From positions 254,501 through 318,500 of the forward strand of contig CAUYUJ010012158.1 of assembly GCA_963575745.1 (NCBI GenBank): a DNA stretch of 64,000 nt, read 5' to 3'. The translations under genes and the position numbers were made by a program. Below the pieces are notes generated by a model. The model made no database searches, had not been told where the DNA came from, and saw nothing but the letters and a program-made list of their open reading frames with translations. This document shows positions 16,525 through 43,642 of this stretch, piece by piece (the stretch's first letter is position 1; each line of letters starts with the position of its first letter). Origin of the DNA: Prorocentrum cordatum (taxonomy: Eukaryota; Sar; Dinophyceae; Prorocentrales; Prorocentraceae).

Positions 16525-16546
16525 CCCGTAGCCATTTTGGCTCAAG
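16525..16546 (+). other. Dinoflagellate spliced-leader sequence in DNA
   Basis: CCGTAGCC, ATTTTGG and CTCAAG occur contiguously at 16526-16546, identical to positions 2-22 of the conserved leader that is trans-spliced onto dinoflagellate mRNAs. The first base is C rather than the usual A, G or T. It is not next to a donor GT, so it is not an SL gene but a leader copied from an mRNA. Confidence 0.9.
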
Positions 16547-18625: not shown

Positions 18626-19375
18626 GAACATCGTTCGACAGCTCGTGCGAGCTCACGTTCAGCTTCGCATTCAGGGCGCGCGCTCCGACACCGCCTTGCG
18701 GCAAGATTCCTTTCGCCGATTGGCTGCCAAAGCGGAGAAACGCTACTGCGGGCGGCTGGGCGCGGGTTGCCCGCCCTCCAGTGCATGCCGAATCGGCGGG
18801 GAAGAGGGCGCTGATAAGGATGGTATTGTTCTTGATCACCCATGTCCCGACATCGCGGCGCGTTTTGAGAAATATCCGATATTCTATGACCAAATGATTG
18901 AAGCCGGGAGACTGAAGAACGAACGGCCTCTCACACTCGATGATATGCGCGACGGCGTGCAATGCCATCGTGACAGTGCGAGTTCTGGCTGCGCGCGCCG
19001 ACGGGCGCGCGCTCCTGGCGCGCTCAGCCGCGGCGATCGCATTTACCGCGGGCCTTTCGCGCCCTCAGCTCCCTCTGGGAGAGGTCAATGTCTGATGGGC
19101 CGGGCTGAGGAGGCCCGGGCGAAAAATGCCCCCCCCAAGTGTAATCCGAACAGGAACAAAGCCGAAATCCAGCTGACCCCACCCGTACTCTTGCACATCT
19201 TTGCTCCTTGGTTTTTCCCAACCAACCTGTGTTGTTGGGTCCTCGTTTTGAAGAGACGGTCCCCGCGTTCCTTCCTCCTTCCTCCTTCCTCCTTCCTTCC
19301 TTCCTTCCTCCTCCTCCTCCCCCCTTCCTCCTCCTCCCTTTCCTCCCCCCTCCTCCCCCTCCCACGCCCATTCTG
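18626..19375. other. No recognisable gene; pyrimidine-rich at the right end
   Basis: Frames are open on both strands without identifiable motifs. From 19260 the sequence becomes CTTCCTCC-type low complexity leading into the minisatellite. Confidence 0.5.
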
Positions 19376-20737
19376 GCCCCATAGGGAGCTCCACCGAAGG
19401 CCCCAGTGGCTGCGCCCGCATGCGGTTCCACCCCCCATTCTGGCACACCCCTCACACGTTTCGTGGCCCCATAGGGAGCTCCACCGAAGGCCCCAGTGGC
19501 TGCGCCCGCATGCGGTTCCACCCCCCATTCTGGCACACCCCTCACACGTTTCGTGGCCCCATAGGGAGCTCCACCGAAGGCCCCAGTGGCTGCGCCCGCA
19601 TGCGGTTCCACCCCCCATTCTGGCACACCCCTCACACGTTTCGTGGCCCCATAGGGAGCTCCACCGAAGGCCCCAGTGGCTGCGCCCGCATGCGGTTCCA
19701 CCCCCCATTCTGGCACACCCCTCACACGTTTCGTGGCCCCATAGGGAGCTCCACCGAAGGCCCCAGTGGCTGCGCCCGCATGCGGTTCCACCCCCCATTC
19801 TGGCACACCCCTCACACGTTTCGTGGCCCCATAGGGAGCTCCACCGAAGGCCCCAGTGGCTGCGCCCGCATGCGGTTCCACCCCCCATTCTGGCACACCC
19901 CTCACACGTTTCGTGGCCCCATAGGGAGCTCCACCGAAGGCCCCAGTGGCTGCGCCCGCATGCGGTTCCACCCCCCATTCTGGCACACCCCTCACACGTT
20001 TCGTGGCCCCATAGGGAGCTCCACCGAAGGCCCCAGTGGCTGCGCCCGCATGCGGTTCCACCCCCCATTCTGGCACACCCCTCACACGTTTCGTGGCCCC
20101 ATAGGGAGCTCCACCGAAGGCCCCAGTGGCTGCGCCCGCATGCGGTTCCACCCCCCATTCTGGCACACCCCTCACACGTTTCGTGGCCCCATAGGGAGCT
20201 CCACCGAAGGCCCCAGTGGCTGCGCCCGCATGCGGTTCCACCCCCCATTCTGGCACACCCCTCACACGTTTCGTGGCCCCATAGGGAGCTCCACCGAAGG
20301 CCCCAGTGGCTGCGCCCGCATGCGGTTCCACCCCCCATTCTGGCACACCCCTCACACGTTTCGTGGCCCCATAGGGAGCTCCACCGAAGGCCCCAGTGGC
20401 TGCGCCCGCATGCGGTTCCACCCCGCATTCTGGCACACCCCTCACACGTTTCGTGGCCCCATAGGGAGCTCCACCGAAGGCCCCAGTGGCTGCGCCTGCA
20501 TGCGGTTCCACCCCCCATTCCGGCACACCCCTCACACGTTTCGTGGCCCCATAGGGAGCTCCACCGAAGGCCCCAGTGGCTGCGCCCGCATGCGGTTCCA
20601 CCCTCTATTCTGGCACACCCCTCACACGTTTCGTGGCCCCATAGGGAGCTCCACCGAAGGCCCCAGTGGCTGCGCTCGCATGCGGTTCCACCCCCAATTT
20701 CGGCACACCCCTCACTCGTTTCGTGGCCCGGGGGCGC
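19376..20737. repeat. 90-bp minisatellite, about 15 copies
   Basis: The unit, landmarks GGCCCCATAGGGAGCTCC, CCCAGTGGCTGCGCCCGCA and CACACCCCTCACACGTTTCG, repeats with exact 90-bp spacing. The first copy lacks 23 bp. The next ten or so copies are identical. The last four carry scattered substitutions (for example CCCGCATTC, CGCCTGCATG, CATTCCGGC, CCTCTATTC). Because 90 is a multiple of three and the unit has no stops, two plus frames and two minus frames stay open for the full array. None has independent evidence of being translated. Confidence 0.97.
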
Positions 20738-21539
20738 CACCGAGGAATAGATCCACAATTGCGGTATTCACAACTACGTATGGTTGGGTCTTTCGTCAGG
20801 CTATTTTTTTCCTTGCGGCTGGCTTTTTGGAATGCGCGGTTAGCGCGGCTATGGCGCGGCAGTCTGTCGCGCGTTCTTGCGCCAGGTTATTGCAGCCAGC
20901 GATGGCGTCGTAGCGAACGGCGCCGAATCGTTGCGATTGCGCCCGCTTCGGGGCCGTTCGTGCGCGCTGCGTAATTCGAATTTGTCGAGCTTTCTCCGGT
21001 GTGTTTCGCGCGCGCCGGCCCTGGCGCCGACGCTGCCGTTCGTCGCGATGAACATGCGGCGGCCCAATAACGTTGCACCCCACTGCGGAGGTCCACATCG
21101 AACCAACAACGCCCATTGAAGTATGTTATGATTTGCTTCCACTATCTCTATCGTGTTCGTTGTCGCCATCAGTTGTCTCTCCTTCTTCACGTCGCTGGTA
21201 TGTCTTCCCAGGTCTGCGCATGCCCAACCTCTTATTATCTCCCCCCTGCCCTTGTCCCCCTCACTGTCTTCCTCTCTGAATCCTCATTGGTGTTCCCTCC
21301 TCCTTTCCTTTTCCTGTCTTGCGTTGTCTTCCCTCTAGCCTCCCTCATCCGTCCTCCTTCCGCCTCTCCCCTCTTCCTTCCTCTCCCCCGTCGCCTTCCC
21401 GCCTTCCCTTCGCGCCCTCCTTGCCGTTCCTCCCGCCCTTCGCTCCCGGCGGCCTGCCTTCTCCCGCCTGCAGCCATGCTCCTCCGTCGCGTTCCTCTTG
21501 TGCCCCGTGGCGCCCCTCCTTCCTGCGAGGTCCCATGAG
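20738..21539. other. No gene seen; CT-rich from about 21210
   Basis: The first 400 bp have near-neutral composition and no recognisable ORF. The remainder is strongly pyrimidine-rich on the plus strand (CTCCC, CTTCC and CCTCC runs). Confidence 0.5.
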
Positions 21540-27557: not shown

Positions 27558-27571
27558 ATAGTGGTTGTGAT
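27558..27571 (+). repeat. Target-site duplication of LINE-A, left
   Basis: ATAGTGGTTGTGAT is identical to 33967-33980. Confidence 0.93.
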
Positions 27572-27624
27572 TTTGTACTGACAGAGACTGACCGCAAGCG
27601 AACCAGCCTTCGTTTGAAAAACAG

Positions 27625-30600
27625 CTAGCCAGCGCAGGGGACGCATTCGACCCGACCCCACGCACCTTGGGATGGGTCGCCGTCGTCCTCCTCTACGCTG
27701 GCAATGGGAAAGCCAGAGAGGCCGTCCCACAAGGCCAGATCGGCCTGGAAAGCGGGCGGCGGAGAGCACTCCTGCCCCGTCCACCCCACCCCCACCCCCC
27801 CACTCCCAGTCCCGACAGGAGGAGAAAGAGCAGGCAGAGGCGGCAGTTCGGCCGACTCCAGCAGCCTTCGCTTCCGCAGCAAAATCGGAGGGCCCACAAA
27901 ATCGCGGGCCCGTAAAGGATGGCAGCCTCGCATGAGGTTGCGCAGCCTGTAGTATCTCGAGTCTCTCACCAGGACACCCTGCCTACGATTCATCGGTAAG
28001 CAATCCTGCGAAAGACCCTGGCTCTTCTTTTCCGAAAATGCCCCGCACAGAGAGCAGAACAGGAAAGGCCCCGCGCGGTGAAGTGCGTGGGAGCTGGACC
28101 TGTCGCCACATCGAAGCTGGCGAAGCACCGAGCGTGTCCTCGCTGATCGAAGGCACACCATGCATCGGAACCTGTGCGCAACCACCGTCACTGCAGGGTC
28201 GAAACGCGAGTGCGGCTTCGGGGGACCAAGTCCCCCCTCAATCGTGCCTATGGCACGGCCGAGTATTTGCGCTTGGGCGTCACGTGGCGTGATGGTGCCG
28301 ATCCGAGCGACCAGCCTGGTACAGAACTGGGCAACAAGGCGGATGGCGCTGCGCGACGCGCCATGCGCAGATCGCAGCTGGAGGGAATCACTATGCATGG
28401 CGGCACCCCATTTAGCCGACTGATCAGCCTGGGCATTGCCGACACGCTGCCATTCTGAAATCCGTCCCTCTGCTACGGCAGAGGCAGGAGTATGCGCTTT
28501 GACGTGAGAAACCTCCACCGACTCACCCCCACGGTCAGACACAAGCCTCCAAACCTCCCTCCAAAGTAAGGCAAGCGGGTCACTCGCAGCGGTGCCCGCT
28601 CCAACGCCTTGGCGCCAGACATCCACGAGCGGCTTGCAATCCGTATAAAACTTCATCTGAGCTCCCATATACCTCAGCGCCATCAAGAAACTGAAAAGCT
28701 CAGCCGCTGGCACAGATTGAATGAGGCAGGGCAGAGGGCCATGCAGGCGAGCAACCACTCGCTTGCTGTCGTCAAGCGAACAGAGTCCCCATCCGCAGCG
28801 CCGTAAGCGAGAGAAACTTCCGTGCCTCCCCGACCCATCACCGAACACGTGCACGTCGAGCAGCAAGTCGGGAGACCGCACCGTCCACACGACTCGCTCC
28901 TCGAGGCAGGGGCTCGGGAAGAGCCAAGCAGGGTCAGGGACAAGAAAGCGCGTGAAAAGCAAGGTATCCACCGCAGCAGCTCGAGCCATGTCTAGCATTT
29001 GACCAGCCATGGCACTGCCAGCTCTGTAATCCCGACGGAACTCGGTATGCAGGGGGCAATCGTAGAATCGGTGCCAGGTAGATCCAGCACTCTGACAGGC
29101 AAGGCAGCTCGGGTTGACGGCTCCACCTGACTCGTACAGTCGCTCCTGCGACCAGAAACCTCCTGCAAACAGGCACCGCAGCAGTCCCTGATGCCTTGGG
29201 GTCCAGTCAGGGCCTCGGACAGAATGAGGCTGGAGGAGGGACCTCAGGGGCTCCACGAGAGGAGGATGAGGGCAGGGCGAGACCCACGAGGGATGCTTCG
29301 CGAGAACCTGGCGCCACACCCACCGCTCGGTGGCCTCATCAACTAACCTACCTCCATCCTTCGGGGAAATCTGTTCAATTGCAAGAGGACCTCGGTGGGT
29401 CTTCCAATGAAAAGGGTCAGATACAGACCAACCCAACCGCAAAATTGTCGCAACTAGCGCAGAAGCAGGTCCGCGAATGTCAGACCAAACTTGAGACACA
29501 GGAACTCTAGACAGGCGTGTCCATGCTCCACTCAGAAGTCGCGCCATATCTGCTCTGGGGGCCCATCCGTCCCACAGCGCCTGCAGCCAGAGGAAGATCG
29601 GGCTCCTGTTGCACTCGAAGGCGGGGTCGACCTGCGGCCCAGCCAGCATGAGGTCCAATGAGAGCGACCTGCCCGTGTGCCTGTAGACCATGCCCGCGCG
29701 CGCCAGTTGCCTGGCGCTCAGTAGGTGCGTGTTGCTGATGCCGTGAACTCCCACTGCCCAGAGCATCCCAGGCTTGAGGCCAGTCTGCACCAGCTTGATC
29801 GTCTTGCCCCCAGCTTTCGCGAGCCGCTTATACCGAGGGATCCGAGACGCCATCCTGCCCAGCCGCTGTGCACGAACCGAATGAGAAAGCCGATTTCCAC
29901 CGCCAAAGTCCAGCCCCAGGTTCCGAACCGAGCGTGTGAGGAACCTCGACGAGGACGGGTTGACTTTCCTAAACACCTTCCGTATGCCTTGGCCGATGAC
30001 CACCTGGTGCTTCTTGGGCAGGGAGAGAGTCAAGCCGATCTGCGTAAGCTCAGCCGCCAATAGGTCCTCGGCCCCCTTGAGTTCCCTGGCGACTTCCCAT
30101 GCCTCGCCAATACGTTGCAACTGCAGATCATCTACCACGACCGCCACCTCGACATTCACGAAGCGAAGAGAGACGGCATCCACTGGCGACAAGAGCACCA
30201 GACGCAGCAGGGAAGTCGCGCAGCTGCAGCCCGCGACAATCGTGCGGTGCGTCACCACCACCTGCGTGGCGATGTTCTGGAAGAGCACCATTCTGTCGAG
30301 GCAATATGATGCGAGCAGGAAGCGAAGGGTCTTACCTCGGAACTTGTGCCGACGGGCTGCTGCAGCTAAAACATGGTGGGGCACGTGCTCATATGCTTTG
30401 ACCAGGTCGAGCAGGGTTGTCCCTGCCGCTCTGCCCTGGTCTCTGGCCAACTCCGCCTTGAAACTCTGCTTCCAAACGCAAATGTCACATGAGGCCCCTG
30501 AGTCACCATACCAGAACCCGCGAGGGTTTGCCTTTTCCCAAGGGCCAGCAACTTTCCATCGGGCCCAGCGGGACCACAACCGAAGAGGCGTCGCGAAGAT

Positions 30601-32568
30601 CCCAATAGGACGATCTCCCCCTTCAGGCGGCGGCTTCGGTAGAAGAGCAATAAGCAGCAGAGCCCAGCACCTCGGAATGTGAACCAGGCGCTGCATCTCG
30701 GCCCAGATCCGAAGGAAAACCGCGACAGCGCCGTCGTCGAGGAAGGACCAGTGACGGGGATGCAGGCCACAGACTCCGATGGCCGTGTGCGTGCTGTAGG
30801 TCCTGGTAAGGGCTAAGAGCTCCTCATGGGTGGGGGCCTCCAGCTCTGGCTCGTCATCGCACCAACCAAAATCAGGCTCTGGGAAAACTTGTCCGACACC
30901 CCAATGCTGATGCCACTTTTGAGCCCGAAGATCGGCTTCAGCAGCAATCCCCAGAGGCTCACCAGACGGCCCCGAGAAACAAGAGAGCCCAGATGCAGCC
31001 CACTTCGGAACCTCTTTGGTGAACCGGTGGCCCAGTCGAGCGCTCCCAGATAACGCATCTTGAACCCACTCACGCCAGGCTCGGGCCCGCTCCGAGGCCG
31101 CATGATGCTCGTGCTGAAGGGCCCACTTTCGGACCTGCCAGATCAACTCCTGGAGCTCCGAGACGTTGGCAGGGTTGACGGCCAGAACCCGAACTCGCCA
31201 AGAAGCCCAATGCTTGCAATCGGTGAAGGGGGACAGGTAGTTCACGAGCTTCCGCAAGAGGATCCCCGCTTGTTTGATCCCCCCCAAGGTGGGCGCAGGC
31301 CCATGCCAGAGATACACGATGTCCTGGAGTCGCCTTTCCAAGACACGCCACATACGGCCCTCCCCAATAGCCCTGGGGTGAGTGGAGGCAGGGGGGCCGA
31401 GCAGAGGGACTTGCACCACCTTGGGGGGGCCTCCTCGGCCTCGGTATCGTGGATCCCCATCGACATGAAATACGCGAGAAAGCGCCACCTCAGCCCTTTG
31501 AACCCACAGAGAAGTGACAGCATCCAAACGGTCCTTGGTACAATCCCCCTGGGAGAGCTGATCACGCAAGTCGTCCCACTCCAGGGGGCGAGGGTCGCAT
31601 CCAACAGGGCGGTGGAGAGGGAACGCCGACGGCTTCTTGAGCCTGGGAACTGTCACCTGCCGCGGGTGGCCAGACATGCTCAACACCACAGGGCGGTGCG
31701 GTCTGGTACTGGTAGACCATGTCGCAACTGAGCAGCTCACCACAAACTGCTTGAGCGAGGAGGAGAGGACAAAGTAATCGATGGACGACCGAGACGTACC
31801 CAACTGACAGGTCCAATTCGAGACGTCAGAGACCACCTCAGCCTGAAGATCCCCAATCCAACCAGACTCGACCAGTTGCTCCGCTGAAAACTGAAAATCT
31901 CCACCCAGAATAAACGGCATGCCATACGCCCTCAGGACCTCCCCAATACTGTGCAGCAAGGAAAGATTTTGACCGCGGCAGCCGATTCCAGTGTGCAGGT
32001 AAACCGATCCGACTAAAACACCTCCAGTACATAACCCACTCCAGAGCCCCAGACGAAATCGACATCCAGGAGGAACCGCGATACCCTCAGGCAAATCATC
32101 GAGTCCTTTGAGGCCCCAGAGCTTCGAAGTCGCAATGCCCACTCCTCCAGTGGTGCCAGCCTCTGAACGACCTGAGGGGGCAGCAGGAGTGAGGAGTGAG
32201 ACCATGCCAGCCTTGACCAGCGCCTGCTGAACGTCCACCAAACGTAGCTCCGTCTGGTGGTGCTCTTGGAAAACGTAGATGTCGGCATCCACAGAGTCGC
32301 AGAGCTCCAGGAAGGGCCTTCTCGTGACCTTACCCCTGTCCCCGCACTCGATGCCCCACGAGGTGATGTTGGCCGTACACAGCTTCCATACCTCAGGCCG
32401 ACGGGCCGCAGGAGTCTCCTCCTGCACCGCAGGAGTCTCCTCCTGCACACTCTCGCCTCGAACTCGTCGATGGCCAGTAGCCCCAGCCCGCGCCGCCAGG
32501 GAGCGCCACCTGCCTCGGTGTGAGGCGGGCGCAGGCAGGCGGCGTCCAGCAGCTGCAGCGCCGACCCC
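27625..32568 (-). CDS. LINE-A ORF2: endonuclease / RT / zinc knuckle / RNase H
   Basis: This polyprotein makes the first-strand nick and copies LINE RNA at the target. The frame is open from ORF1's end to TAG at 27625. The APE-type endonuclease (TANITSWG, QEHH, GGVGIA, GDFQFS, SIDYF, PHRPV) is followed by an RT with motif A LLDLVKAYEHV, motif B VAGCSCATSLL and motif C VVVDDL, then a CCHC knuckle (CLACQSAGSTWHRFYDC), RNase H (FGDGSG, AAELFSF, YTDCKPLVD, KAHTP, NAQADQSAK) and a C-terminal Cys pair region. No in-frame ATG lies between the ORF1 stop and the endonuclease, so the start shown is the first codon after ORF1. Translation may use a +1 frameshift, a non-AUG start, or re-initiation. The linker here carries a 21-bp tandem duplication (32408-32448, reading VQEETPA twice) absent from LINE-B. 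Confidence 0.9.
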   Translation of the reverse strand, partial: GVGAAAAGRRLPAPASHRGRWRSLAARAGATGHRRVRGESVQEETPAVQEETPAARRPEVWKLCTANITSWGIECGDRGKVTRRPFLELCDSVDADIYVFQEHHQTELRLVDVQQALVKAGMVSLLTPAAPSGRSEAGTTGGVGIATSKLWGLKGLDDLPEGIAVPPGCRFRLGLWSGLCTGGVLVGSVYLHTGIGCRGQNLSLLHSIGEVLRAYGMPFILGGDFQFSAEQLVESGWIGDLQAEVVSDVSNWTCQLGTSRSSIDYFVLSSSLKQFVVSCSVATWSTSTRPHRPVVLSMSGHPRQVTVPRLKKPSAFPLHRPVGCDPRPLEWDDLRDQLSQGDCTKDRLDAVTSLWVQRAEVALSRVFHVDGDPRYRGRGGPPKVVQVPLLGPPASTHPRAIGEGRMWRVLERRLQDIVYLWHGPAPTLGGIKQAGILLRKLVNYLSPFTDCKHWASWRVRVLAVNPANVSELQELIWQVRKWALQHEHHAASERARAWREWVQDALSGSARLGHRFTKEVPKWAASGLSCFSGPSGEPLGIAAEADLRAQKWHQHWGVGQVFPEPDFGWCDDEPELEAPTHEELLALTRTYSTHTAIGVCGLHPRHWSFLDDGAVAVFLRIWAEMQRLVHIPRCWALLLIALLPKPPPEGGDRPIGIFATPLRLWSRWARWKVAGPWEKANPRGFWYGDSGASCDICVWKQSFKAELARDQGRAAGTTLLDLVKAYEHVPHHVLAAAARRHKFRGKTLRFLLASYCLDRMVLFQNIATQVVVTHRTIVAGCSCATSLLRLVLLSPVDAVSLRFVNVEVAVVVDDLQLQRIGEAWEVARELKGAEDLLAAELTQIGLTLSLPKKHQVVIGQGIRKVFRKVNPSSSRFLTRSVRNLGLDFGGGNRLSHSVRAQRLGRMASRIPRYKRLAKAGGKTIKLVQTGLKPGMLWAVGVHGISNTHLLSARQLARAGMVYRHTGRSLSLDLMLAGPQVDPAFECNRSPIFLWLQALWDGWAPRADMARLLSGAWTRLSRVPVSQVWSDIRGPASALVATILRLGWSVSDPFHWKTHRGPLAIEQISPKDGGRLVDEATERWVWRQVLAKHPSWVSPCPHPPLVEPLRSLLQPHSVRGPDWTPRHQGLLRCLFAGGFWSQERLYESGGAVNPSCLACQSAGSTWHRFYDCPLHTEFRRDYRAGSAMAGQMLDMARAAAVDTLLFTRFLVPDPAWLFPSPCLEERVVWTVRSPDLLLDVHVFGDGSGRHGSFSRLRRCGWGLCSLDDSKRVVARLHGPLPCLIQSVPAAELFSFLMALRYMGAQMKFYTDCKPLVDVWRQGVGAGTAASDPLALLWREVWRLVSDRGGESVEVSHVKAHTPASAVAEGRISEWQRVGNAQADQSAKWGAAMHSDSLQLRSAHGASRSAIRLVAQFCTRLVARIGTITPRDAQAQILGRAIGTIEGGLGPPKPHSRFDPAVTVVAHRFRCMVCLRSARTRSVLRQLRCGDRSSSHALHRAGPFLFCSLCGAFSEKKSQGLSQDCLPMNRRQGVLVRDSRYYRLRNLMRGCHPLRARDFVGPPILLRKRRLLESAELPPLPALSPPVGTGSGGVGVGWTGQECSPPPAFQADLALWDGLSGFPIASVEEDDGDPSQGAWGRVECVPCAG

Positions 32569-32569
32569 G

Positions 32570-33814
32570 CTACCCCGACGGGGGTGGGGCACCAGCGACA
32601 TCGCGGTCAGCAGGCATAGGCATAGGAACATCAGCAGGAACATCAGCAGCCGCAGGGCCAGGCGCGGCCGAGGGGGCCGCCGCCGCCGCAGCCTCTGGGC
32701 CTGGCGCGTCCCTCCTGGGCCTCTTGCTGAGGGCTGAAGGGTTCTGCAGGAAATCGAGCATGGTCCTGTAGAGACCTTCGTACTGCCCTGCCTGTCCGCC
32801 CTCCAGCAACTCAGTAAGTTGCTGCTTGCAATCCTCCGCCACACGTGAGTCCGAGGGTGCCGCTGGGGCTGGCGAAGGGCCGCTGCCCGACATGGCACGC
32901 TGCGCGGCCTCCTCGGCCTGTGCCTTCCGCCGTGCTTCCTCCTGCTCCTGGAAAGAGGCCCCAGCAGCAGCCAGGTCGCCCAGGAGGTCCACCGCGGTGC
33001 GGAGCTGGTCCGCCTTCGCCACTCTGAACGACTCGGGCAGATGGCCGAACAGCGTCTCCACCAGCCCGTTGACAGCCGCCTTGCAGTCATCACCAGCAGG
33101 GTGAAGAGCAGCACGTCGATGGAGCCTCTGGAGCTCCTCCTCTTCCTTCTTGACCAATTCCGCCAGAGCCGCCTGGGATGCAACGCAGTCCTCCAGGTCC
33201 TGCTCCAGCTCCGTGATCTGTTGACGGAGGTTGGCCTCCGTCGCCTTCGACGCAGTAAGCTGGCCCTGGAAGTGGGCCAGCTTGTCCTGATGGGACCGAA
33301 CTCGCATCCATGGCGGTGGGCCACGTTCGTCAGGCTGAGCAGCAGCAGCGGAGGGCACCTGAGCCTTGGCGGCCACCATGAGCGGGTGGTCGTCTGCCAG
33401 TCCAGCAAGCGTGAGCTGCTCCACTGCAGCCGCGAGGTAGTCGCGCTGCGTCTGCTTGCCACCTGCGTCCGATCCTTTGCCACTGCGCTGTTGGGCCGAG
33501 CCGCCCTTCCCACTCCCAGACTGGGACTGGTCAGCACTCGTGCCTGGGCTCGACTTGGCCTTGCGGCGCGTGGACTCCACCTGTTGCCATGCATCCTTGG
33601 ACTGCTGCTCGCCTGTCCAAGGACGGGGGGGCCCCTTGACCGTGTCCCGAACCGGGTCGTCGCGGAGCCACTTCTTGCAACGATAGCAGCGAGCCCAATC
33701 CACCAGATTATACTGATAGCCACATGAGCTCTTGCCATAGCACGTCTTGTAGCCGCTCTGGGAGCGGGTCTGGTGTCTGCTCTGGGAGCGGGGCTGCGGG
33801 GGCGCGGGGACCAT
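32570..33814 (-). CDS. LINE-A ORF1 (RNA-binding/coiled-coil protein), 414 aa
   Basis: The ATG at 33814 lies about 150 nt after the SL. The N-terminus is Ser/Arg/Gln-rich. CYGKSSC and ARCYRCKKWL (about residues 25-50) form a likely zinc-binding Cys4. A Gln/Gly/Ser-rich linker follows, then a coiled coil (HQDKLAHFQGQLTASKATE to QEQEEARRKAQAEEAA, about 170-310) and an Ala/Pro-rich tail ending PPPSG. This organisation fits LINE ORF1 proteins that coat the RNA. It has two more residues (Met-Pro) than the LINE-B copy. The overlapping ORF2-phase frame is also open throughout, but this frame is the conserved one. Confidence 0.85.
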   Translation of the reverse strand: MVPAPPQPRSQSRHQTRSQSGYKTCYGKSSCGYQYNLVDWARCYRCKKWLRDDPVRDTVKGPPRPWTGEQQSKDAWQQVESTRRKAKSSPGTSADQSQSGSGKGGSAQQRSGKGSDAGGKQTQRDYLAAAVEQLTLAGLADDHPLMVAAKAQVPSAAAAQPDERGPPPWMRVRSHQDKLAHFQGQLTASKATEANLRQQITELEQDLEDCVASQAALAELVKKEEEELQRLHRRAALHPAGDDCKAAVNGLVETLFGHLPESFRVAKADQLRTAVDLLGDLAAAGASFQEQEEARRKAQAEEAAQRAMSGSGPSPAPAAPSDSRVAEDCKQQLTELLEGGQAGQYEGLYRTMLDFLQNPSALSKRPRRDAPGPEAAAAAAPSAAPGPAAADVPADVPMPMPADRDVAGAPPPSG

Positions 33815-33921
33815 GCCACAGCAGCTCGAGAGCAGGAGAAGCCAAAAACCCTCGTCTGGCCTGGCAGACGAGGAGGAGCACTGTGGGGGCCGCTGCTCCC
33901 CCCTTGCCAGTGAGGCCAGGT

Positions 33922-33942
33922 CCTGACCCGAAGGGCTACGGA
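33922..33942 (-). other. Relict (older) spliced leader in LINE-A
   Basis: Directly downstream of the intact leader on the minus strand lies TCCGTAGCCCTTCGGGTCAG followed by G. It is one base shorter than the equivalent in LINE-B and keeps most positions of the leader. Confidence 0.75.
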
Positions 33943-33964
33943 CTTGAGCCAAAATGGCTACGGA
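33943..33964 (-). other. Intact 22-nt spliced leader at LINE-A 5' end
   Basis: The minus strand reads TCCGTAGCC, ATTTTGG, CTCAAG without interruption, a perfect match to the dinoflagellate leader with T at the variable first base. Only two T residues separate it from the TSD. Confidence 0.96.
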
Positions 33965-33966
33965 AA

Positions 33967-33980
33967 ATAGTGGTTGTGAT
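33967..33980 (+). repeat. Target-site duplication of LINE-A, right
   Basis: ATAGTGGTTGTGAT is identical to 27558-27571. Confidence 0.93.
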
Positions 33981-37133: not shown

Positions 37134-37148
37134 CCCAGCAGCCCATCC
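37134..37148 (+). repeat. Target-site duplication of LINE-B, left
   Basis: CCCAGCAGCCCATCC is identical to 43628-43642 and directly adjoins the spliced leader. Confidence 0.95.
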
Positions 37149-37170
37149 TCCGTAGCCATTTTGGCTCAAG
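37149..37170 (+). other. Intact 22-nt spliced leader at LINE-B 5' end
   Basis: TCCGTAGCC, ATTTTGG and CTCAAG occur contiguously, a perfect match to the dinoflagellate leader, with no base between it and the TSD. Confidence 0.97.
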
Positions 37171-37192
37171 TCCGTAGCCCTTTCGGGTCAGG
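37171..37192 (+). other. Relict spliced leader in LINE-B
   Basis: TCCGTAGCCCTTTCGGGTCA followed by GG matches the leader at 18 of 22 positions. Such degraded leaders downstream of a fresh one are known in dinoflagellate genes and are read as traces of an earlier retroposition round. Confidence 0.8.
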
Positions 37193-37299
37193 ACCTGGCC
37201 TCACTGGCAAGGGGGGAGCAGCGGCCCCCACAGTGCTCCTCCTCGTCTGCCAGGCCAGACGAGGGATTTTGGCTTCTCCCGCTCTCGAGCTGCTGTGGC

Positions 37300-38538
37300 A
37301 TGGTCCCCGCGCCCCCGCAGCCCCGCTCCCAGAGCAGACACCAGACCCGCTCCCAGAGCGGCTACAAGACGTGCTATGGCAAGAGCTCATGTGGCTATCA
37401 GTATAATCTGGTGGATTGGGCTCGCTGCTATCGTTGCAAGAAGTGGCTCCGCGACGACCCGGTTCGGGACACGGTCAAGGGGCCCCCCCGTCCTTGGTCA
37501 GGCGAGCAGCAGTCCAAGGATGCATGGCAACAGGTGGAGTCCACGCGCCGCAAGGCCAAGTCGGGCCCAGGCACGAGTGCTGACCAATCCCAGTCTGGGA
37601 GTGGGAAGGGCGGCTCGGCCCAGCAGCGCAGTGGCAAAGGCTCGGACACAGGTGGCAAGCAGACGCAGCGCGACTACCTCGCGGCGGCAGTGGAGCAGCT
37701 CACGCTTGCTGGGCTGGCTGACGACCACCCGCTCATGGTGGCCGCCAAGGCTCAGGTGCCCTCCGCTGCTGCTGCCCAACCTGACGAACGTGGCCCACCG
37801 CCATGGATGCGAGTTCGGTCCCATCAGGACAAGCTGGCCCACTTCCAGGGCCAGCTTACTGCGTCGAAGGCGACGGAGGCCAACCTCCGTCAACAGATCA
37901 CGGAGCTGGAGCAGGACCTGGAGGACTGCGTTGCATCCCAGGCGGCTCTGGCGGAATCGGTCAAGAAGGAAGAGGAGGAGCTCCAGAGGCTCCATCGACG
38001 TGCTGCTCTTCACCCTGCTGGCGATGACTGCAAGGCGGCGGTCAACGGGCTGGTGGAGACGCTGTTCGGCCATCTGCCCGAGTCGTTCAGAGTGGCGAAG
38101 GCGGACCAGCTCCGCACCGCGGTGGACCTCCTGGGCGACCTGGCTGCTGCTGGGGCCTCTTTCCAGGAGCAGGAGGAAGCACGGCGGAGGGCACAGGCCG
38201 AGGAGGCCGCGCGGCGTGCCATGTCGGGCAGCGGCCCTTCGCCAGCCCCAGTGGCACCCTCGGACTCACGCGTGGCGGAGGATTGCAAGCAGCAGCTTAC
38301 TGAATTGCTGGAGGGCGGACAGGCAGGGCAGTACGAAGGTCTCTACAGGACCATGCTCGAGTTCCTGCAGAACCCTTCAGCCCTCAGCAAGAGGCCCAGG
38401 AGGGACGCGCCAGGCCCTGAGGCTGCGGCGGCGGCGGCCCCCTCGGCCGCGCCTGGGCCTGCGGCTGCTGATGTTCCTGCTGATGTTCCTATGCCTGCTG
38501 ACCGCGATGTCGCTGGAGCCCCACCCCCGTCGGGGTAG
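37300..38538 (+). CDS. LINE-B ORF1, 412 aa
   Basis: The ATG at 37300 is the first in this frame after the leader. The architecture matches LINE-A ORF1: Cys4-type segment, Ser/Gly-rich linker, central coiled coil and Ala/Pro tail. Between the two copies this frame shows only about eight substitutions and a two-residue indel. In the block covering RDYLAAAVEQLTLAGLADD to PDERGPP there are several nucleotide differences and none changes the protein. The same differences alter many residues in the overlapping frame. That marks this frame as the selected one. Confidence 0.87.
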   Translation: MVPAPPQPRSQSRHQTRSQSGYKTCYGKSSCGYQYNLVDWARCYRCKKWLRDDPVRDTVKGPPRPWSGEQQSKDAWQQVESTRRKAKSGPGTSADQSQSGSGKGGSAQQRSGKGSDTGGKQTQRDYLAAAVEQLTLAGLADDHPLMVAAKAQVPSAAAAQPDERGPPPWMRVRSHQDKLAHFQGQLTASKATEANLRQQITELEQDLEDCVASQAALAESVKKEEEELQRLHRRAALHPAGDDCKAAVNGLVETLFGHLPESFRVAKADQLRTAVDLLGDLAAAGASFQEQEEARRRAQAEEAARRAMSGSGPSPAPVAPSDSRVAEDCKQQLTELLEGGQAGQYEGLYRTMLEFLQNPSALSKRPRRDAPGPEAAAAAAPSAAPGPAAADVPADVPMPADRDVAGAPPPSG

Positions 38539-38539
38539 C

Positions 38540-41500
38540 GGGGTCGTCGATGCAGCGGGACACCGCTTGCCTGCGCCCGCCTCGCTCGATGCAGCGGGAC
38601 ACCGCTTGCCTGCGCCCGCCTCGCACCGAGGCAGGTGGCGCTCTCTGGCGGCGCGGGGTGGGGCTAATGGGGCTGCTGGATCCGATGCTCAGGTTCCTGG
38701 GCCAGCAGACCCGCGGGCGCCGCCTCCTGATGCTGGGTCGGGCTCGAAGGTCTTGGAGCCTTCTGCCCGTGTCGCTCGGCGGCCTGAGGCGGCCCGTCGG
38801 CCTGATGTATGGAAGCTGTGTACGGCCAACATCACCTCGTGGGGCATCGAGTGCGGGGACAAGGGTAAGGTCACGCGACGGCCCTTCCTGGAGCTCTGCG
38901 ACTCTGTGGATGCCGACATCTACGTTTTCCAAGAGCACCACCAGACGGAGCTACGTTTGGTGGACGTTCAGCAGGCGCTGGTCAAGGCTGGCATGGTCTC
39001 GCTCCTCGCTCCGGCTGCCCCCTCAGGTCGTTCAGAGGCTGGCACCACTGGAGGAGTTGGCATTGCGACTTCGAAGCTCTGGGGCCTCAAAGGACTCGAT
39101 GATTTGCCTGAGGGTATCGCGGTTCCTCCTGGATGTCGATTTCGTCTGGGGCTCTGGAGTGGGTTATGTACTGGAGGTGTTTTAGTCGGATCGGTCTACC
39201 TGCACACTGGAATCGGTTGCCGCGGTCAAAATCTTTCCCTGCTACATAGCATTGGGGAGGTCCTGAGGGCGTATGGCATGCCGTTTATTCTGGGTGGAGA
39301 TTTTCAGTTTTCAGCGGAGCAACTGGTCGAGTCTGGTTGGATTGGGGATCTTCAGGCTGAGGTGGTCTCTGACGTCTCGAATTGGACCTGTCAGTTGGGT
39401 ACCTCTCGGTCGTCCATCGATTACTTTGTCCTCTCCTCCTCGCTCAAGCAGTTTGTGGTGAGCTGCTCAGTTGCGACATGGTCTACCTGTACCAGACCGC
39501 ACCGCCCTGTGGTGTTGAGCATGTCTGGCCACCCGCGACAGGTGACAGTTCCCAGACTCAAGAAGCCGTCGGCGCTCCCTCTCCACCGCCCTGTTGGGTG
39601 CGACCCTCGCCCCCTGGAGTGGGATGACTTGCTTGATCAGCTTACCCAGGGGGATTGTACCAAGGACCGTTTGGATGCTGTCACTTCTCTGTGGGTTCAA
39701 AGAGCTGAGGTGGCGCTATCTCGTGTATTTCATGTTGATGGGGATCCACGGTACCGAGGCCGAGGAGGCCCCCCCAAGGTGGTGCAAGTCCCTTTGCTCG
39801 GCCCCCCAGCCTCCACTCATCCCAGGGCTATTGGGGAGGGCCGTATGTGGCGTGTCTTGGAAAGGCGACTCCAGGACATCGTATATCTCTGGCATGGGCC
39901 TGCGCCCACCTTGGGGGGGATAAAACAAGCGGGGAGCCTCTTGCGGAAGCTCGTGCACTACCAGTCCCCCTACACCGATTGCAAGCATTGGGCTTCTTGG
40001 AGAGTTCGGGTTCTGGCCGTCAACCCTGCCAACGTCTCGGAGCTCCAGGAGTTGATCTGGCAGGTCCGCAAGTGGGCCCTTCAGCACGAGCATCATGCGG
40101 CCTCTGAGCGGGCCCGAGCCTGGCGTGAGTGGGTTCAAGATGCTTTATCTGGGAGCGCTCGACTGGGCCACCGGTTCACCAAAGAGGTTCCCAAGTGGGC
40201 TGCATCTGGGCTCTCTTGTTTCTCGGGGCCGTCTGGTGAACCTCTGGGGATTGCTGCTGAAGCCGATCATCGGGCTCAAAAGTGGCATCAGCATTGGGGT
40301 GTCGGCCAAGCTTTCCCAGAGCCTGATTTTGACTGGTGCGATGACGAGCCAGAGCTGGAGGCCCCCACCCATGAGGAGCTCTTAGCCCTTACCAGGACCT
40401 ACAGCACGCACACGGCCATTGGAGTCTGTGGCCTGCATCCCCGTCATTGGTCCTTCCTTGACGACGGCGCTGTCGCGGTCTTCCTACGGATCTGGGTCGA
40501 GATGCAGCGCCTGGTTCACATTCCGAGGTGCTGGGCTCTGCTGCTTATTGCTCTTCTACCGAAGCCGCCGCCTGAAGGGGGAGATCGTCCTATTGGGATC
40601 TTCGCGACGCCTCTTCGGTTGTGGTCCCGTTGGGCCCGATGGAAAGTTGCTGGCCCCTGGGAAAAGGCCAACCCTCGGTTGTTCTGGTATGGTGACTCAG
40701 GGGCCTCATGTGACATTTGCGTTTGGAAGCAGAGTTTCAAGGCGGAGTTGGCCAGGGACCAGGGCAGAGCGGCAGGGACAACCCTGCTCGACCTGGTCAA
40801 AGCATACGAGCACGTGCCCCATCATGTTTTAGCTGCAGCTGCCCGTCGGCACAAGTTCCGAGGTAAGACCCTTCGCTTCCTGCTCGCATCATATTGCCTC
40901 GACAGAATGGTGCTCTTCCAGAACATCGCCACACAGGCGGTGGTGACGCACCGCACGATTGTCGCGGGCTGCAGCTGCGCGACTTCCCTGCTGCGTCTGG
41001 TGCTCTTGTCGCCAGTGGATGCCGTCTCTCTTCGCTTCGTGAATGTCGAGGTGGCGGTCGTGGTGGATGATCTGCAGTTGCAACGTATTGGCGAGGCGTG
41101 GGAAGTTGCCAGGGAACTCAAGGGGGCCGAGGACCTCTTGGCGGCTGAGCTTTCGCAGATCGGCTTGACCCTCTCCCTGCCCAAGAAGCACCAGGTGGTC
41201 ATCGGCCAAGGCATACGGAAGGTGTTTAGGAAAGTCAACCCGTCCTCGTCGAGGTTCCTCACACGCTCGGTTCGGAACCTGGGGCTGGACTTTGGCGGTG
41301 GAAATCGGCTTTCTCATTCGGTTCGTGCACAGCGGCTGGGCAGGATGGCGTCTCGGATCCCTCGGTATAAGCGGCTCGCGAAAGCTGGGGGCAAGACGAT
41401 CAAACTGGTGCAGACTGGCCTCAAGCCTGGTATGCTCTGGGCAGTGGGAGTTCACGGCATCAGCAACACGCACCTGCTGAGGGCGAGGCAGCTGGCGCGC

Positions 41501-43573
41501 GCGGGCATGGTCTACAGGCACACGGGCAGGTCGCTCTCATTGGACCTCATGCTTGCTGGGCCGCAGGTCGACCCCGCCTTCGAGTGCAACAGGAGCCCGA
41601 TCTTCCTCTGGCTGCAGGCGCTGTGGGACGGATGGGCCCCCAGAGCAGATATGGCGCGACTTCTGAGTGGAGCATGGGCACGCCTGTCTAGTGTTCCTGT
41701 GTCTCAAGTTTGGTCTGACATTCGCGGACCTGCTTCTGCGCTAGTTGCGACACTTTTGCGGTTGGGTTGGTCTGTATCTGACCCTTTTCATTGGAAGACC
41801 CACCGAGGTCCTCTCGCAATTGAACAGATTTCCCCGAAGGATGGAGGTAGGTTAGTTGATGAGGCCACCGAGCGGTGGGTGTGGCGACAGGTTCTCGCGA
41901 AGCATCCCTCGTGGGTCTCGCCCTGCCCTCATCCTCCTCTCGTGGAGCCCCTGAGGTCCCTCCTCCAGCCTCATTCTATCCGAGGCCCTGACTGGACCCC
42001 AAGGCATCAGGGTCTTCTGCGGTGCCTTTTTGCAGGAGGGTTCTGGTCGCAGGAGCGACTGTACGAGTCAGGTGGAGCCGTCAACCCGAGCTGCCTTGCC
42101 TGTCAGAGTGCTGGATCTACCTGGCACCGATTCTACGATTGCCCCCTGCATACTGAGTTTCGTCGGGATTACAGAGCTGGCAGTGCCATGGCTGGTCAAA
42201 TGCTTGACATGGCTCGTGCTGCTGCGGTGGATACCTTGCTTTTCACGCGCTTTCTTGTCCCTGACCCTGCTTGGCTCTTCCCGAGCCCCTGCCTCGAGGA
42301 GCGAGTCGTGTGGACGGTGCGGTCTCCCGACTTGCTGCTCGATATGCACGTGTTCGGTGATGGGTCGGGGAGGCACGGACGTTTCTCTCGCTTACGGCGC
42401 TGCGGATGGGGACTCTGTTCGCTTGACGACAGCAAGCGAGTGGTTGCTCGCCTCCATGGCCCTCTGCCCTGTCTCATTCAATCTGTGCCAGCGGCTGAGC
42501 TTTTCAGTTTCTTGATGGCGCTGCGCTATATGGGAGCTCAGATGAAGTTTTATACGGATTGCAAGCCACTCGTGGATGTCTGGCGCCAAGGTGTTGGAGC
42601 AGGCACCGCTGCGAGTGACCCGCTTGCCTTACTATGGAGGGAGGTTTGGAGGCTTGTGTCTGACCGTGGGGGTGAGTCGGTGGAGGTTTCTCACGTCAAA
42701 GCACATACTCCTGCCTCTGCCGTAGCAGAGGGACGGATTTCAGAATGGCAGAGGGTCGGCAATGCCCAAGCTGATCAGTCGGCTAAATGGGGTGCCGCCA
42801 TGCATAGAGATTCCCTCCAGCTGCGTTCTGCGCATGGCGCGTCGCGCAGCGCCATCCGCCTAGTTGCTCAGTTCTGTACCAGGCTGGTCGCTCGGATCGG
42901 CACGATCACGCCACGGGACGCTCAAGCGCAAATACTCGGCCGTGCCATAGGCACGATTGAGGGGGGACTCGGTCCCCCGAAGCCGCACTCGCGCTTCGAC
43001 CCTGCTGTGACGGTGGTTGCGCAAAGGTTCCGATGCATGGTGTGCCTTCGGTCAGCGAGGACACGCTCGGTGCTTCGCCAGCTTCGTTGTGACGACAGGA
43101 CCAGCTCCCACGCACTTCACCGCGCGGGGCCCTTCCTGTTCTGCTCTCTGTGCGGGGCTTTTTCGGAAAAGAAGAGCCAGGGTCTTTCGCAGGATTGCTT
43201 GCCGATGAATCGTAGGCAGGGTGTCCTCGTGAGAGACTCGAGGTACTACAGGCTGCGCAACCTCATGCGAGGCTGCCATCCGCTTCGGTCCCGCGAGTTC
43301 GTGGGCCCTCCGATTTTGCTGCGGAAGCGCAGGCTGCTCGAGTCGGCCGAACTGCCGCCTCTGCCTGCTCTCTCTCCTTCGGTCGGGACTGGGAGTGGGG
43401 GGGTGGGGGTGGGGTGGACGGGGCAGGTGTGCTCGCCGCCGCCCGCTTTCCAGGCCGATCTGGCCTTGTGGGACGGCCTTGCTGGCTTTCCCATTGCCAG
43501 CGTAGAGGAGGACGACGGCGACCCATCCCACGGTGCGTGGGATCGGGTCGAATGCGTCCCCTGCGCTGGCTAG
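38540..43573 (+). CDS. LINE-B ORF2: endonuclease / RT / zinc knuckle / RNase H
   Basis: Numbering from 38540: variable linker 1-88, APE-type endonuclease about 89-330 (LCTANITSWG; QEHH; GGDFQFS, with Gln where Asn is usual; SIDYFVLS; RPHRPV in place of S-D-H), RT about 680-950 (GDRPIGIFATP, LLDLVKAYEHV, VAGCSCATSLL, catalytic VVVDDL at 841-846), CCHC knuckle at 1185-1201, RNase H about 1270-1415 with the D-E-D-D residues (Asp1274 in GDGSG), then CMVC and CSLC pairs near 1500 and 1535. It is in +1 phase relative to ORF1 and has no ATG before the endonuclease. The linker contains a 39-bp tandem duplication (38548-38586 and 38587-38625) absent from LINE-A. Confidence 0.92.
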   Translation, partial: GVVDAAGHRLPAPASLDAAGHRLPAPASHRGRWRSLAARGGANGAAGSDAQVPGPADPRAPPPDAGSGSKVLEPSARVARRPEAARRPDVWKLCTANITSWGIECGDKGKVTRRPFLELCDSVDADIYVFQEHHQTELRLVDVQQALVKAGMVSLLAPAAPSGRSEAGTTGGVGIATSKLWGLKGLDDLPEGIAVPPGCRFRLGLWSGLCTGGVLVGSVYLHTGIGCRGQNLSLLHSIGEVLRAYGMPFILGGDFQFSAEQLVESGWIGDLQAEVVSDVSNWTCQLGTSRSSIDYFVLSSSLKQFVVSCSVATWSTCTRPHRPVVLSMSGHPRQVTVPRLKKPSALPLHRPVGCDPRPLEWDDLLDQLTQGDCTKDRLDAVTSLWVQRAEVALSRVFHVDGDPRYRGRGGPPKVVQVPLLGPPASTHPRAIGEGRMWRVLERRLQDIVYLWHGPAPTLGGIKQAGSLLRKLVHYQSPYTDCKHWASWRVRVLAVNPANVSELQELIWQVRKWALQHEHHAASERARAWREWVQDALSGSARLGHRFTKEVPKWAASGLSCFSGPSGEPLGIAAEADHRAQKWHQHWGVGQAFPEPDFDWCDDEPELEAPTHEELLALTRTYSTHTAIGVCGLHPRHWSFLDDGAVAVFLRIWVEMQRLVHIPRCWALLLIALLPKPPPEGGDRPIGIFATPLRLWSRWARWKVAGPWEKANPRLFWYGDSGASCDICVWKQSFKAELARDQGRAAGTTLLDLVKAYEHVPHHVLAAAARRHKFRGKTLRFLLASYCLDRMVLFQNIATQAVVTHRTIVAGCSCATSLLRLVLLSPVDAVSLRFVNVEVAVVVDDLQLQRIGEAWEVARELKGAEDLLAAELSQIGLTLSLPKKHQVVIGQGIRKVFRKVNPSSSRFLTRSVRNLGLDFGGGNRLSHSVRAQRLGRMASRIPRYKRLAKAGGKTIKLVQTGLKPGMLWAVGVHGISNTHLLRARQLARAGMVYRHTGRSLSLDLMLAGPQVDPAFECNRSPIFLWLQALWDGWAPRADMARLLSGAWARLSSVPVSQVWSDIRGPASALVATLLRLGWSVSDPFHWKTHRGPLAIEQISPKDGGRLVDEATERWVWRQVLAKHPSWVSPCPHPPLVEPLRSLLQPHSIRGPDWTPRHQGLLRCLFAGGFWSQERLYESGGAVNPSCLACQSAGSTWHRFYDCPLHTEFRRDYRAGSAMAGQMLDMARAAAVDTLLFTRFLVPDPAWLFPSPCLEERVVWTVRSPDLLLDMHVFGDGSGRHGRFSRLRRCGWGLCSLDDSKRVVARLHGPLPCLIQSVPAAELFSFLMALRYMGAQMKFYTDCKPLVDVWRQGVGAGTAASDPLALLWREVWRLVSDRGGESVEVSHVKAHTPASAVAEGRISEWQRVGNAQADQSAKWGAAMHRDSLQLRSAHGASRSAIRLVAQFCTRLVARIGTITPRDAQAQILGRAIGTIEGGLGPPKPHSRFDPAVTVVAQRFRCMVCLRSARTRSVLRQLRCDDRTSSHALHRAGPFLFCSLCGAFSEKKSQGLSQDCLPMNRRQGVLVRDSRYYRLRNLMRGCHPLRSREFVGPPILLRKRRLLESAELPPLPALSPSVGTGSGGVGVGWTGQVCSPPPAFQADLALWDGLAGFPIASVEEDDGDPSHGAWDRVECVPCAG

Positions 43574-43627
43574 AGGTTTTTCAAACGAAGGCTGGTTCGC
43601 TTGCGGTCAGTCTCTATCAGCAAAAAA

Positions 43628-43642
43628 CCCAGCAGCCCATCC
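43628..43642 (+). repeat. Target-site duplication of LINE-B, right
   Basis: CCCAGCAGCCCATCC follows the six-A tail and is identical to 37134-37148. Confidence 0.95.

What the first reader, a model, noticed from the sequence alone, without database searches (positions are those of the whole stretch)
37134..37192. LINE-B integrated with an intact spliced leader abutting its TSD, followed by a relict leader
The sequence shows a 15-bp TSD, then with no gap the full 22-nt dinoflagellate leader, then a second leader-like 22-mer with 18 matches. Established: the SL is added in trans to nuclear mRNAs, and genes with tandem relict leaders are read as recycled mRNAs. Inference: this LINE's own RNA is trans-spliced and the mature form is the transposing template. 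Each cycle can then add a new leader at the old one's CTCAAG acceptor. The SL would supply cap and translation signals to an element with no visible promoter.
Basis: partly seen in the sequence, partly recalled or inferred. Interest (0 to 1): 0.9.

Follow-up and report, generated by a model that had tools for sequence, protein, structure and literature searches.

The report
Jumping gene reborn through trans-spliced leaders
In a dinoflagellate alga, nearly all the full-length copies examined of three LINE-type jumping-gene families begin with the short leader that the cell splices onto its messenger RNAs, which points to the trans-spliced messenger itself as the form that jumps.

Summary
LINE-B has a 15-bp target-site duplication (37134-37148), then the 22-nt DinoSL (37149-37170), then an 18/22 leader-like unit (37171-37192). 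LINE-A (minus strand) has the same head and a different duplication. The genome matches Prorocentrum cordatum. All 54 genomic places with an exact LINE-B 5'-UTR 32-mer (SL not in the query) were read: they are 51 distinct insertions; 49 start with the intact SL, 2 start inside it, and none extends upstream. In two other LINE families 21 of 22 and 37 of 38 junctions read carry the SL with at most one mismatch. One LINE-B copy carries a new SL joined exactly after the TAG of the second unit, 3 insertions carry SL plus the 15-nt remnant of a previous SL, and a copy of a second family repeats the first case. Trans-splicing of LINE RNA at AG acceptors, then target-primed reverse transcription, explains this; an inherited DNA leader alone does not. 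Corrections: splicing at CTCAAG replaces the old leader rather than adding one, and the second unit is conserved, not decaying. No RNA was examined; absence of a promoter is inferred. No trans-spliced LINE template was found in the papers searched.

The parts
37134..37148 (+). 5' target-site duplication of LINE-B, cccagcagcccatcc
37149..37170 (+). intact 22-nt dinoflagellate spliced leader, first 22 nt of LINE-B
37171..37192 (+). second leader-like unit (18/22), identical in nearly all family copies read
37193..37299 (+). 5' UTR of LINE-B; the 32-mer anchor used for the census lies at 37193-37224
37300..38538 (+). ORF1, 412 aa, CCCC zinc-finger-like motif near the N terminus
   Evidence: motif read by eye
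38507..43573 (+). ORF2 (start codon is a guess; the frame is open from 37295): APE-type endonuclease motifs by eye from about 38813, RT 40739-41260, RNase H 42344-42796
43574..43627 (+). 3' UTR and short A tail of LINE-B
43628..43642 (+). 3' target-site duplication of LINE-B
27572..33964 (-). LINE-A, second copy of the family, inverted relative to LINE-B, open frame of 2064 aa
33943..33963 (-). intact SL (21-mer) at the 5' end of LINE-A; its T is at 33964
33922..33942 (-). second leader-like unit of LINE-A with one base deleted
33967..33980 (-). 5' target-site duplication of LINE-A, atcacaaccactat
27558..27571 (-). 3' target-site duplication of LINE-A

Best explanation
LINE-B belongs to a young non-LTR retrotransposon family whose transposing RNA is a mature, SL-trans-spliced, polyadenylated mRNA. 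Shown from DNA: insertions run from nt 1 of the SL to a short A tail between target-site duplications, and new SLs have been joined at AG dinucleotides inside older leader units. Inferred: a copy is transcribed from upstream (read-through of a host unit); the spliceosome joins a new SL at an AG within the copy's own leader units, usually the terminal CTCAAG (old leader replaced seamlessly), sometimes the internal TAG (a 15-nt remnant stays, or the second unit is cut back); ORF1 and ORF2 proteins are translated from this mRNA and copy it by target-primed reverse transcription up to the SL end. The SL carried in the DNA thus serves as a portable 3' splice site, so a new copy lands with a fresh 5' end and needs no promoter of its own. 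Two further LINE families in this genome have the same 5' ends.
For: Census without SL in the query: the exact 32-mer downstream of the second unit has 54 places in the genome; all 54 5' junctions were read. Three pairs share flanks, leaving 51 distinct insertions: 49 with the exact SL, 2 starting inside it (L029, L042), 0 extending upstream. A T precedes CCG in 47 of 47 distinct exact-SL insertions outside the window and in both window copies. Of 37 outside places with exact SL and a readable 3' end (45 regions fetched), 32 have a TSD of 9 nt or more within 6 nt of the SL, 27 of these 32 at gap 0 or 1. Re-addition: L117 has SL|CCCTTTCGGGTCAGG, joined exactly after the TAG of the second unit, with its own TSD; L036, L057 and L064 have SL|CCATTTTGGCTCAAG|second unit; L010 (about 70% aa identity to LINE-B; found through its SL) has SL joined after the TAG position of its family's second unit, one base substituted, with a 15-bp TSD abutting the SL; L184 has SL|near-complete older SL|second unit. 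Other families: 21 of 22 junctions read of the L010 family and 37 of 38 of the L009 family start with the SL at one mismatch or fewer. Weak support: in the L009 family SL changes are mostly private to one copy while body variants are mostly shared (2 informative columns to 8 private changes against 58 to 31, P 0.013; without the truncated L153, 1 to 5, P 0.028).
Against: No RNA was examined. Most copies could come from few masters, so 49 SL heads are not 49 proven splicing events. SL conservation alone does not discriminate: in the L010 family the second unit is as invariant as the SL (0 of 22 and 0 of 21 informative columns); the private-to-shared contrast is not significant there (P 0.15) nor, in the L009 family, against the first 100 nt of body (P 0.16 without L153; informative columns alone P 0.53). 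L134 starts at the second unit without a separate front SL. Five of the 37 TSD tests found no duplication of 9 nt or more within 6 nt; three of these five have a TSD at a longer gap and two, among them L036, only a 7-nt match. Copies with a diverged anchor were not counted (one search had 273 first-look candidates, 40 scored).
Confidence: 0.87

Rival explanations
1. Encoded leader: one ancestral LINE RNA acquired an SL once; since then the SL is an ordinary part of the element, copied from DNA, with an internal promoter that starts transcription at SL nt 1.
For: The second 22-mer, which is not renewed, is conserved too; many copies may stem from few masters; the simple SL|second-unit head is shared by most copies; the private-versus-shared test for renewal is weak.
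Against: Five insertions in two families carry a new SL joined at an AG of an older unit (L036, L057, L064, L117, L010). The SL is the exact host leader in families so diverged that the LINE-B profile does not hit L009 or L022.
Confidence: 0.09
2. Template switching: during target-primed reverse transcription the enzyme jumps from the LINE RNA 5' end to the SL exon of SL RNA or of another mRNA.
For: 5' template jumping is known for other LINEs (recalled, not tested here).
Against: In the junctions read only the exon is present, no further SL-RNA or mRNA sequence, and the joints in L117, L036, L057, L064 and L010 lie exactly after AG, as splicing and not jumping predicts.
Confidence: 0.02
3. 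DNA duplication of one SL-containing master with its flanks, or insertion into SL genes as in SLACS/CZAR elements.
For: 3 of 54 places are second members of flank-sharing pairs; the window holds two copies close together.
Against: 51 distinct flanks, and the TSDs differ from copy to copy.
Confidence: 0.01

Closest known systems
SL-tagged retrogenes with tandem relict leaders in dinoflagellates (Slamovits and Keeling 2008, as described in PMC3229502 and PMC7245778; passages seen, original not seen)
   Same: Processed SL-mRNA reverse-transcribed into the genome; relicts cut after the AG near nt 7 of the SL, as in L036, L057, L064 and L117.
   Different: There host genes are passive passengers and the responsible element was said to be unknown (PMC6050394, passage). 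Here the element encodes the reverse transcriptase, and most copies show intact SL heads without a truncated relict.
Trypanosomatid LINEs L1Tc/ingi (PMC8190864, passages seen)
   Same: LINEs in a host with SL trans-splicing and polycistronic transcription.
   Different: They carry the internal Pr77 promoter, and a ribozyme in L1Tc, and make unspliced transcripts; here the template carries the SL.
Cer1 LTR element of C. elegans (PMC3315495, passages seen)
   Same: A retroelement transcript that receives an SL.
   Different: The spliced 2.4-kb mRNA occurs with and without SL1; the 8-kb genomic RNA was not trans-spliced at that site.
SL-gene-targeted LINEs of trypanosomes (SLACS, CZAR, CRE; recalled)
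   Same: LINE physically next to SL sequence.
   Different: Those insert into SL genes; here the SL is the element's own 5' end and the flanks are unrelated.
Endogenous dinoflagellate RNA virus sequences with nearby dinoSL, LINEs suggested as the integrating machinery (PMC10235124; passages seen)
   Same: Links host retroelements such as LINEs with retroposition of SL-bearing RNA.
   Different: The passengers are viral; the passages do not describe SL heads on the LINEs themselves or a TSD census.

Membership tests
Non-LTR retrotransposon (LINE) | reverse transcriptase domain in a long ORF | tested here: met
   LINE-B: RVT_1 E 1e-4, below Pfam's cut-off; above the cut-off in other SL-headed elements L009, L011, L014, L016, L022
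Non-LTR retrotransposon (LINE) | APE or RLE endonuclease | tested here: inconclusive
   LINE-B: Pfam silent, APE motifs seen by eye; Exo_endo_phos above cut-off in L009, L014, L016
Non-LTR retrotransposon (LINE) | no LTRs, A-tailed 3' end, TSDs of varying sequence and length | tested here: met
   no long direct repeat at the two ends
Non-LTR retrotransposon (LINE) | assignment to a named clade (I, Tad, R1, L1 and others) | not tested
   RNase H at its cut-off suggests the RNase H-bearing group; the one homologue search gave 1 hit at 23% identity; no tree made
SL-tagged processed retrocopy | SL at the 5' end abutting the TSD, A tail at the 3' end | tested here: met
SL-tagged processed retrocopy | relict SL cut after the internal AG | tested here: met
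   only in a minority: L036, L057, L064 and L117 of 51; the main second unit of the family is full length, so it is not of this type
SL-tagged processed retrocopy | passive copy of a host gene | tested here: not met
   the two window copies encode RT and RNase H
SLACS/CZAR-type SL-gene-specific LINE | insertion at a fixed site in SL genes | tested here: not met
   51 distinct flanks
Trypanosomatid ingi/L1Tc | unspliced RNA from an internal promoter at the 5' end | not testable with these tools
   no transcripts here; the SL heads argue against unspliced templates

The most novel reading that the evidence does not exclude
LINEs of several unrelated lineages in this genome have given up a promoter: the SL carried at their 5' end is a portable 3' splice site that is exchanged for a fresh SL on each round, so the 5' end is supplied anew by the host in every cycle, and the same machinery is the source of the SL-tagged retrogenes of dinoflagellates.
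Probability: 0.6. Interest if true: 0.9.

Novelty: new variant of a known kind. Interest (0 to 1): 0.85.

Why it matters
A LINE must carry its promoter downstream of its own start or lose it. A trans-spliced template that regenerates its 5' end would be a different solution, available only in organisms with spliced leaders, and could help explain LINE success in a 4-Gb genome. It names a candidate machinery for the mRNA recycling of dinoflagellates; one review states that the type of element responsible is unknown and favours LTR elements (PMC6050394, passage). It also gives a DNA record of trans-splice acceptor use: each scar type reports which AG was used. Practical consequence: an SL in this genome is often a LINE start rather than a retrogene (RT or endonuclease downstream of 15 of 21 sampled sites), so counts of SL-tagged retrogenes may need LINEs removed first.

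Tried and rejected
Rejected: chance match; DNA duplication of one master and SL-gene targeting (flanks); template switching (joints after AG, exon only). Weakened by my own test: the argument that the SL is renewed because it is better conserved than the body. In the L010 family the second unit is just as invariant; the first comparison (without L010 and L134) was distorted by two copies whose downstream part is another family (L143, L144), which I then dropped too. In the L009 family (L177, L181 and L182 left out before counting, L009 and L022 kept) 4 of the 8 private SL changes come from L153, whose head is cut short rather than mutated; without it the contrast is P 0.028 against the whole body and P 0.16 against its first 100 nt. 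So I rest re-addition on the AG-joined copies.

Led nowhere: PDB search (0 hits); homologous proteins (1 hit at 23%); viral contigs (1 contig, not read further); the third leader at 16526 (no LINE profile hit, no TSD of 10 nt or more within 9 kb). Not done because the genome machine did not answer: SL-inclusive queries for three more LINE families. A genome count of SL|full-second-unit and a tree of the families were not made.

Full report
WHAT IS THERE. In the window, LINE-B occupies 37149-43627 between 15-bp target-site duplications (37134-37148; 43628-43642). Its first 22 nt are the dinoflagellate spliced leader, the next 22 a leader-like unit with 18 matches. LINE-A (27572-33964, minus strand) is a second copy, 97-98% alike over arms of 4839 and 1318 nt, with the same head, a different 14-bp TSD and two extra T between TSD and leader. 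Both carry a long open frame with RNase H at or above Pfam's cut-off and RT below it; an ORF1 precedes it in LINE-B. A third exact leader (16526) has no LINE downstream by profile and no TSD of 10 nt or more within 9 kb.

THE GENOME. The window lies in an assembly of 4,128,499,153 bases and 21,875 contigs; contig C1 has 3,562,531 bases. The published P. cordatum assembly has 4.15 Gb, 22,724 scaffolds and a longest scaffold of 3.56 Mbp (PMC10666404, passages), so the host is very probably P. cordatum. The exact 21-nt leader occurs 14,218 times there (7,201 + 7,017; reversed-pattern control 0); 1,202 places have it followed at once by the 15-nt leader remnant.

The anchor, a 32-mer downstream of the second unit, contains neither leader; it has 54 exact places. 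All 54 5' junctions were read: two in the window, 39. Three pairs share flanks (identical last 20 nt), giving 51 distinct insertions. 49 of 51 begin with the exact 21-mer, after a T in 47 of 47 outside the window and in both window copies. L029 begins 11 nt inside the leader; L042 lacks the first nucleotides and has one substitution. None extends further upstream. Head types among the 51: 41 SL|second unit, 4 SL|G|second unit (L051, L105, L106, L107), 3 SL|CCATTTTGGCTCAAG|second unit (L036, L057, L064), 1 SL|CCCTTTCGGGTCAGG (L117), and the 2 short ones. Of 45 3'-end regions fetched, 37 belong to places with an exact SL and a readable tail; 32 of the 37 show a TSD of at least 9 nt within 6 nt of the leader, 27 of these 32 directly (gap 0, or 1 = the leader's own T); 29 of the 32 are 11-17 nt and three 23-26 nt (one flank-sharing pair is in the 37). 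Five of the 37 fail: three have a TSD at a longer gap, two (L036, L043) only a 7-nt match. L117 has its own TSD. The census counts only copies with an exact anchor; 5'-truncated copies and copies with a changed anchor are outside it.

WHY TRANS-SPLICING. In target-primed reverse transcription (established for LINEs) a full-length insertion ends at the 5' end of the RNA. The RNA therefore began with the complete leader. In L117 and L010 the leader is joined exactly after the TAG position of the second unit, and in L036, L057 and L064 exactly after the TAG of an older leader: the acceptor position described for relict leaders of dinoflagellate retrogenes (PMC3229502, passages). This shows leader addition to LINE RNA after a leader-headed copy already existed. 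The simple SL|second-unit heads are best read as splicing at the terminal CTCAAG, which exchanges the old leader without trace, but copying of an inherited leader cannot be excluded copy by copy.

OTHER FAMILIES. L010 (about 70% aa identity to LINE-B): query after the leader, 40 of 111 candidates scored; 24 hits besides L010 reach the query start, 22 of these were read. 15 have the exact SL, 6 one mismatch, 1 (L134) starts at the second unit itself; no flanks are shared. L184 has three units. L009 (RVT_1 and Exo_endo_phos above cut-off; L009 and L022 not hit by the LINE-B profile): 40 of 295 candidates scored; the 38 besides L009 and L022 were all read: 29 exact SL, 8 with one mismatch, 1 (L153) with only the last 15 nt of the leader (L176 and L177 share flanks). 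Together 110 of 114 places read without SL in the query carry the leader with at most one mismatch; the other four start inside it or at the second unit. From the leader side, 21 of the first 23 places listed were fetched with 8-10 kb (1:639 and 1:426146 left out): 15 have RT or endonuclease downstream, 9 by an iterated LINE profile built on these same regions (L028 by a partial hit; antisense control 0) and 6 by Pfam (L020 by endonuclease below its cut-off). The other 6 had no RT or endonuclease hit among the ORFs tested.

A CORRECTION ABOUT THE RELICT. In the LINE-B copies read, the second unit is identical except in LINE-A and L117; in 17 clean L010-family copies it has 0 of 22 informative columns, against 10 of the first 100 body columns. 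It retains the TAG. This looks like a maintained element, possibly a reserve 3' splice site, rather than a decaying relict. It also means that SL conservation by itself is no proof of renewal; the tests of private against shared changes are weak.

LITERATURE. Six full-text searches (a seventh was for the genome) and passages of twelve papers showed no report of LINEs that start with the dinoflagellate SL; subscription papers are mostly missing from the library, so this is no claim of absence in print. Trypanosomatid LINEs make unspliced transcripts from Pr77 (PMC8190864); the Cer1 genomic RNA is not trans-spliced (PMC3315495); retrogene papers leave the enzyme open or favour LTR elements (PMC6050394, PMC12014239); PMC10235124 suggests LINEs as integrators of SL-bearing viral RNA; PMC8045281 describes Symbiodiniaceae LINEs as old remnants, unlike the 99-100% alike LINE-B heads here.

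VERDICT. What is missing is RNA.

Noticed in passing
L009 family junctions, L145-L182: 36 of 38 copies have CCT-rich tracts (at least half of the trinucleotides in the 40 nt upstream), SL following the CCT strand: a microsatellite-preferring LINE.
   Followed up: partly
window 33922-33942 and 37171-37192; L125-L142: The second leader-like unit is conserved within families and keeps its TAG; it may be a functional 3' splice site.
   Followed up: partly
L051, L105, L106, L107: Four insertions with different flanks carry one extra G between SL and second unit, perhaps a subfamily or a second acceptor choice.
   Followed up: no
L134: A copy that starts directly with the second unit, whose end reads GGCTGCACGAG: perhaps a fusion of leader and second unit or an older single-leader state.
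   Followed up: no
window 16526-16546: Third exact SL in the window, inside an ORF, no LINE profile hit and no TSD found; perhaps a host retrocopy.
   Followed up: partly
window 19284-20843: Tandem array with a 90-nt period, its middle copies identical.
   Followed up: no
L185 (IMG/VR contig): The only viral-collection contig with the exact SL, two copies 147 bases apart.
   Followed up: no
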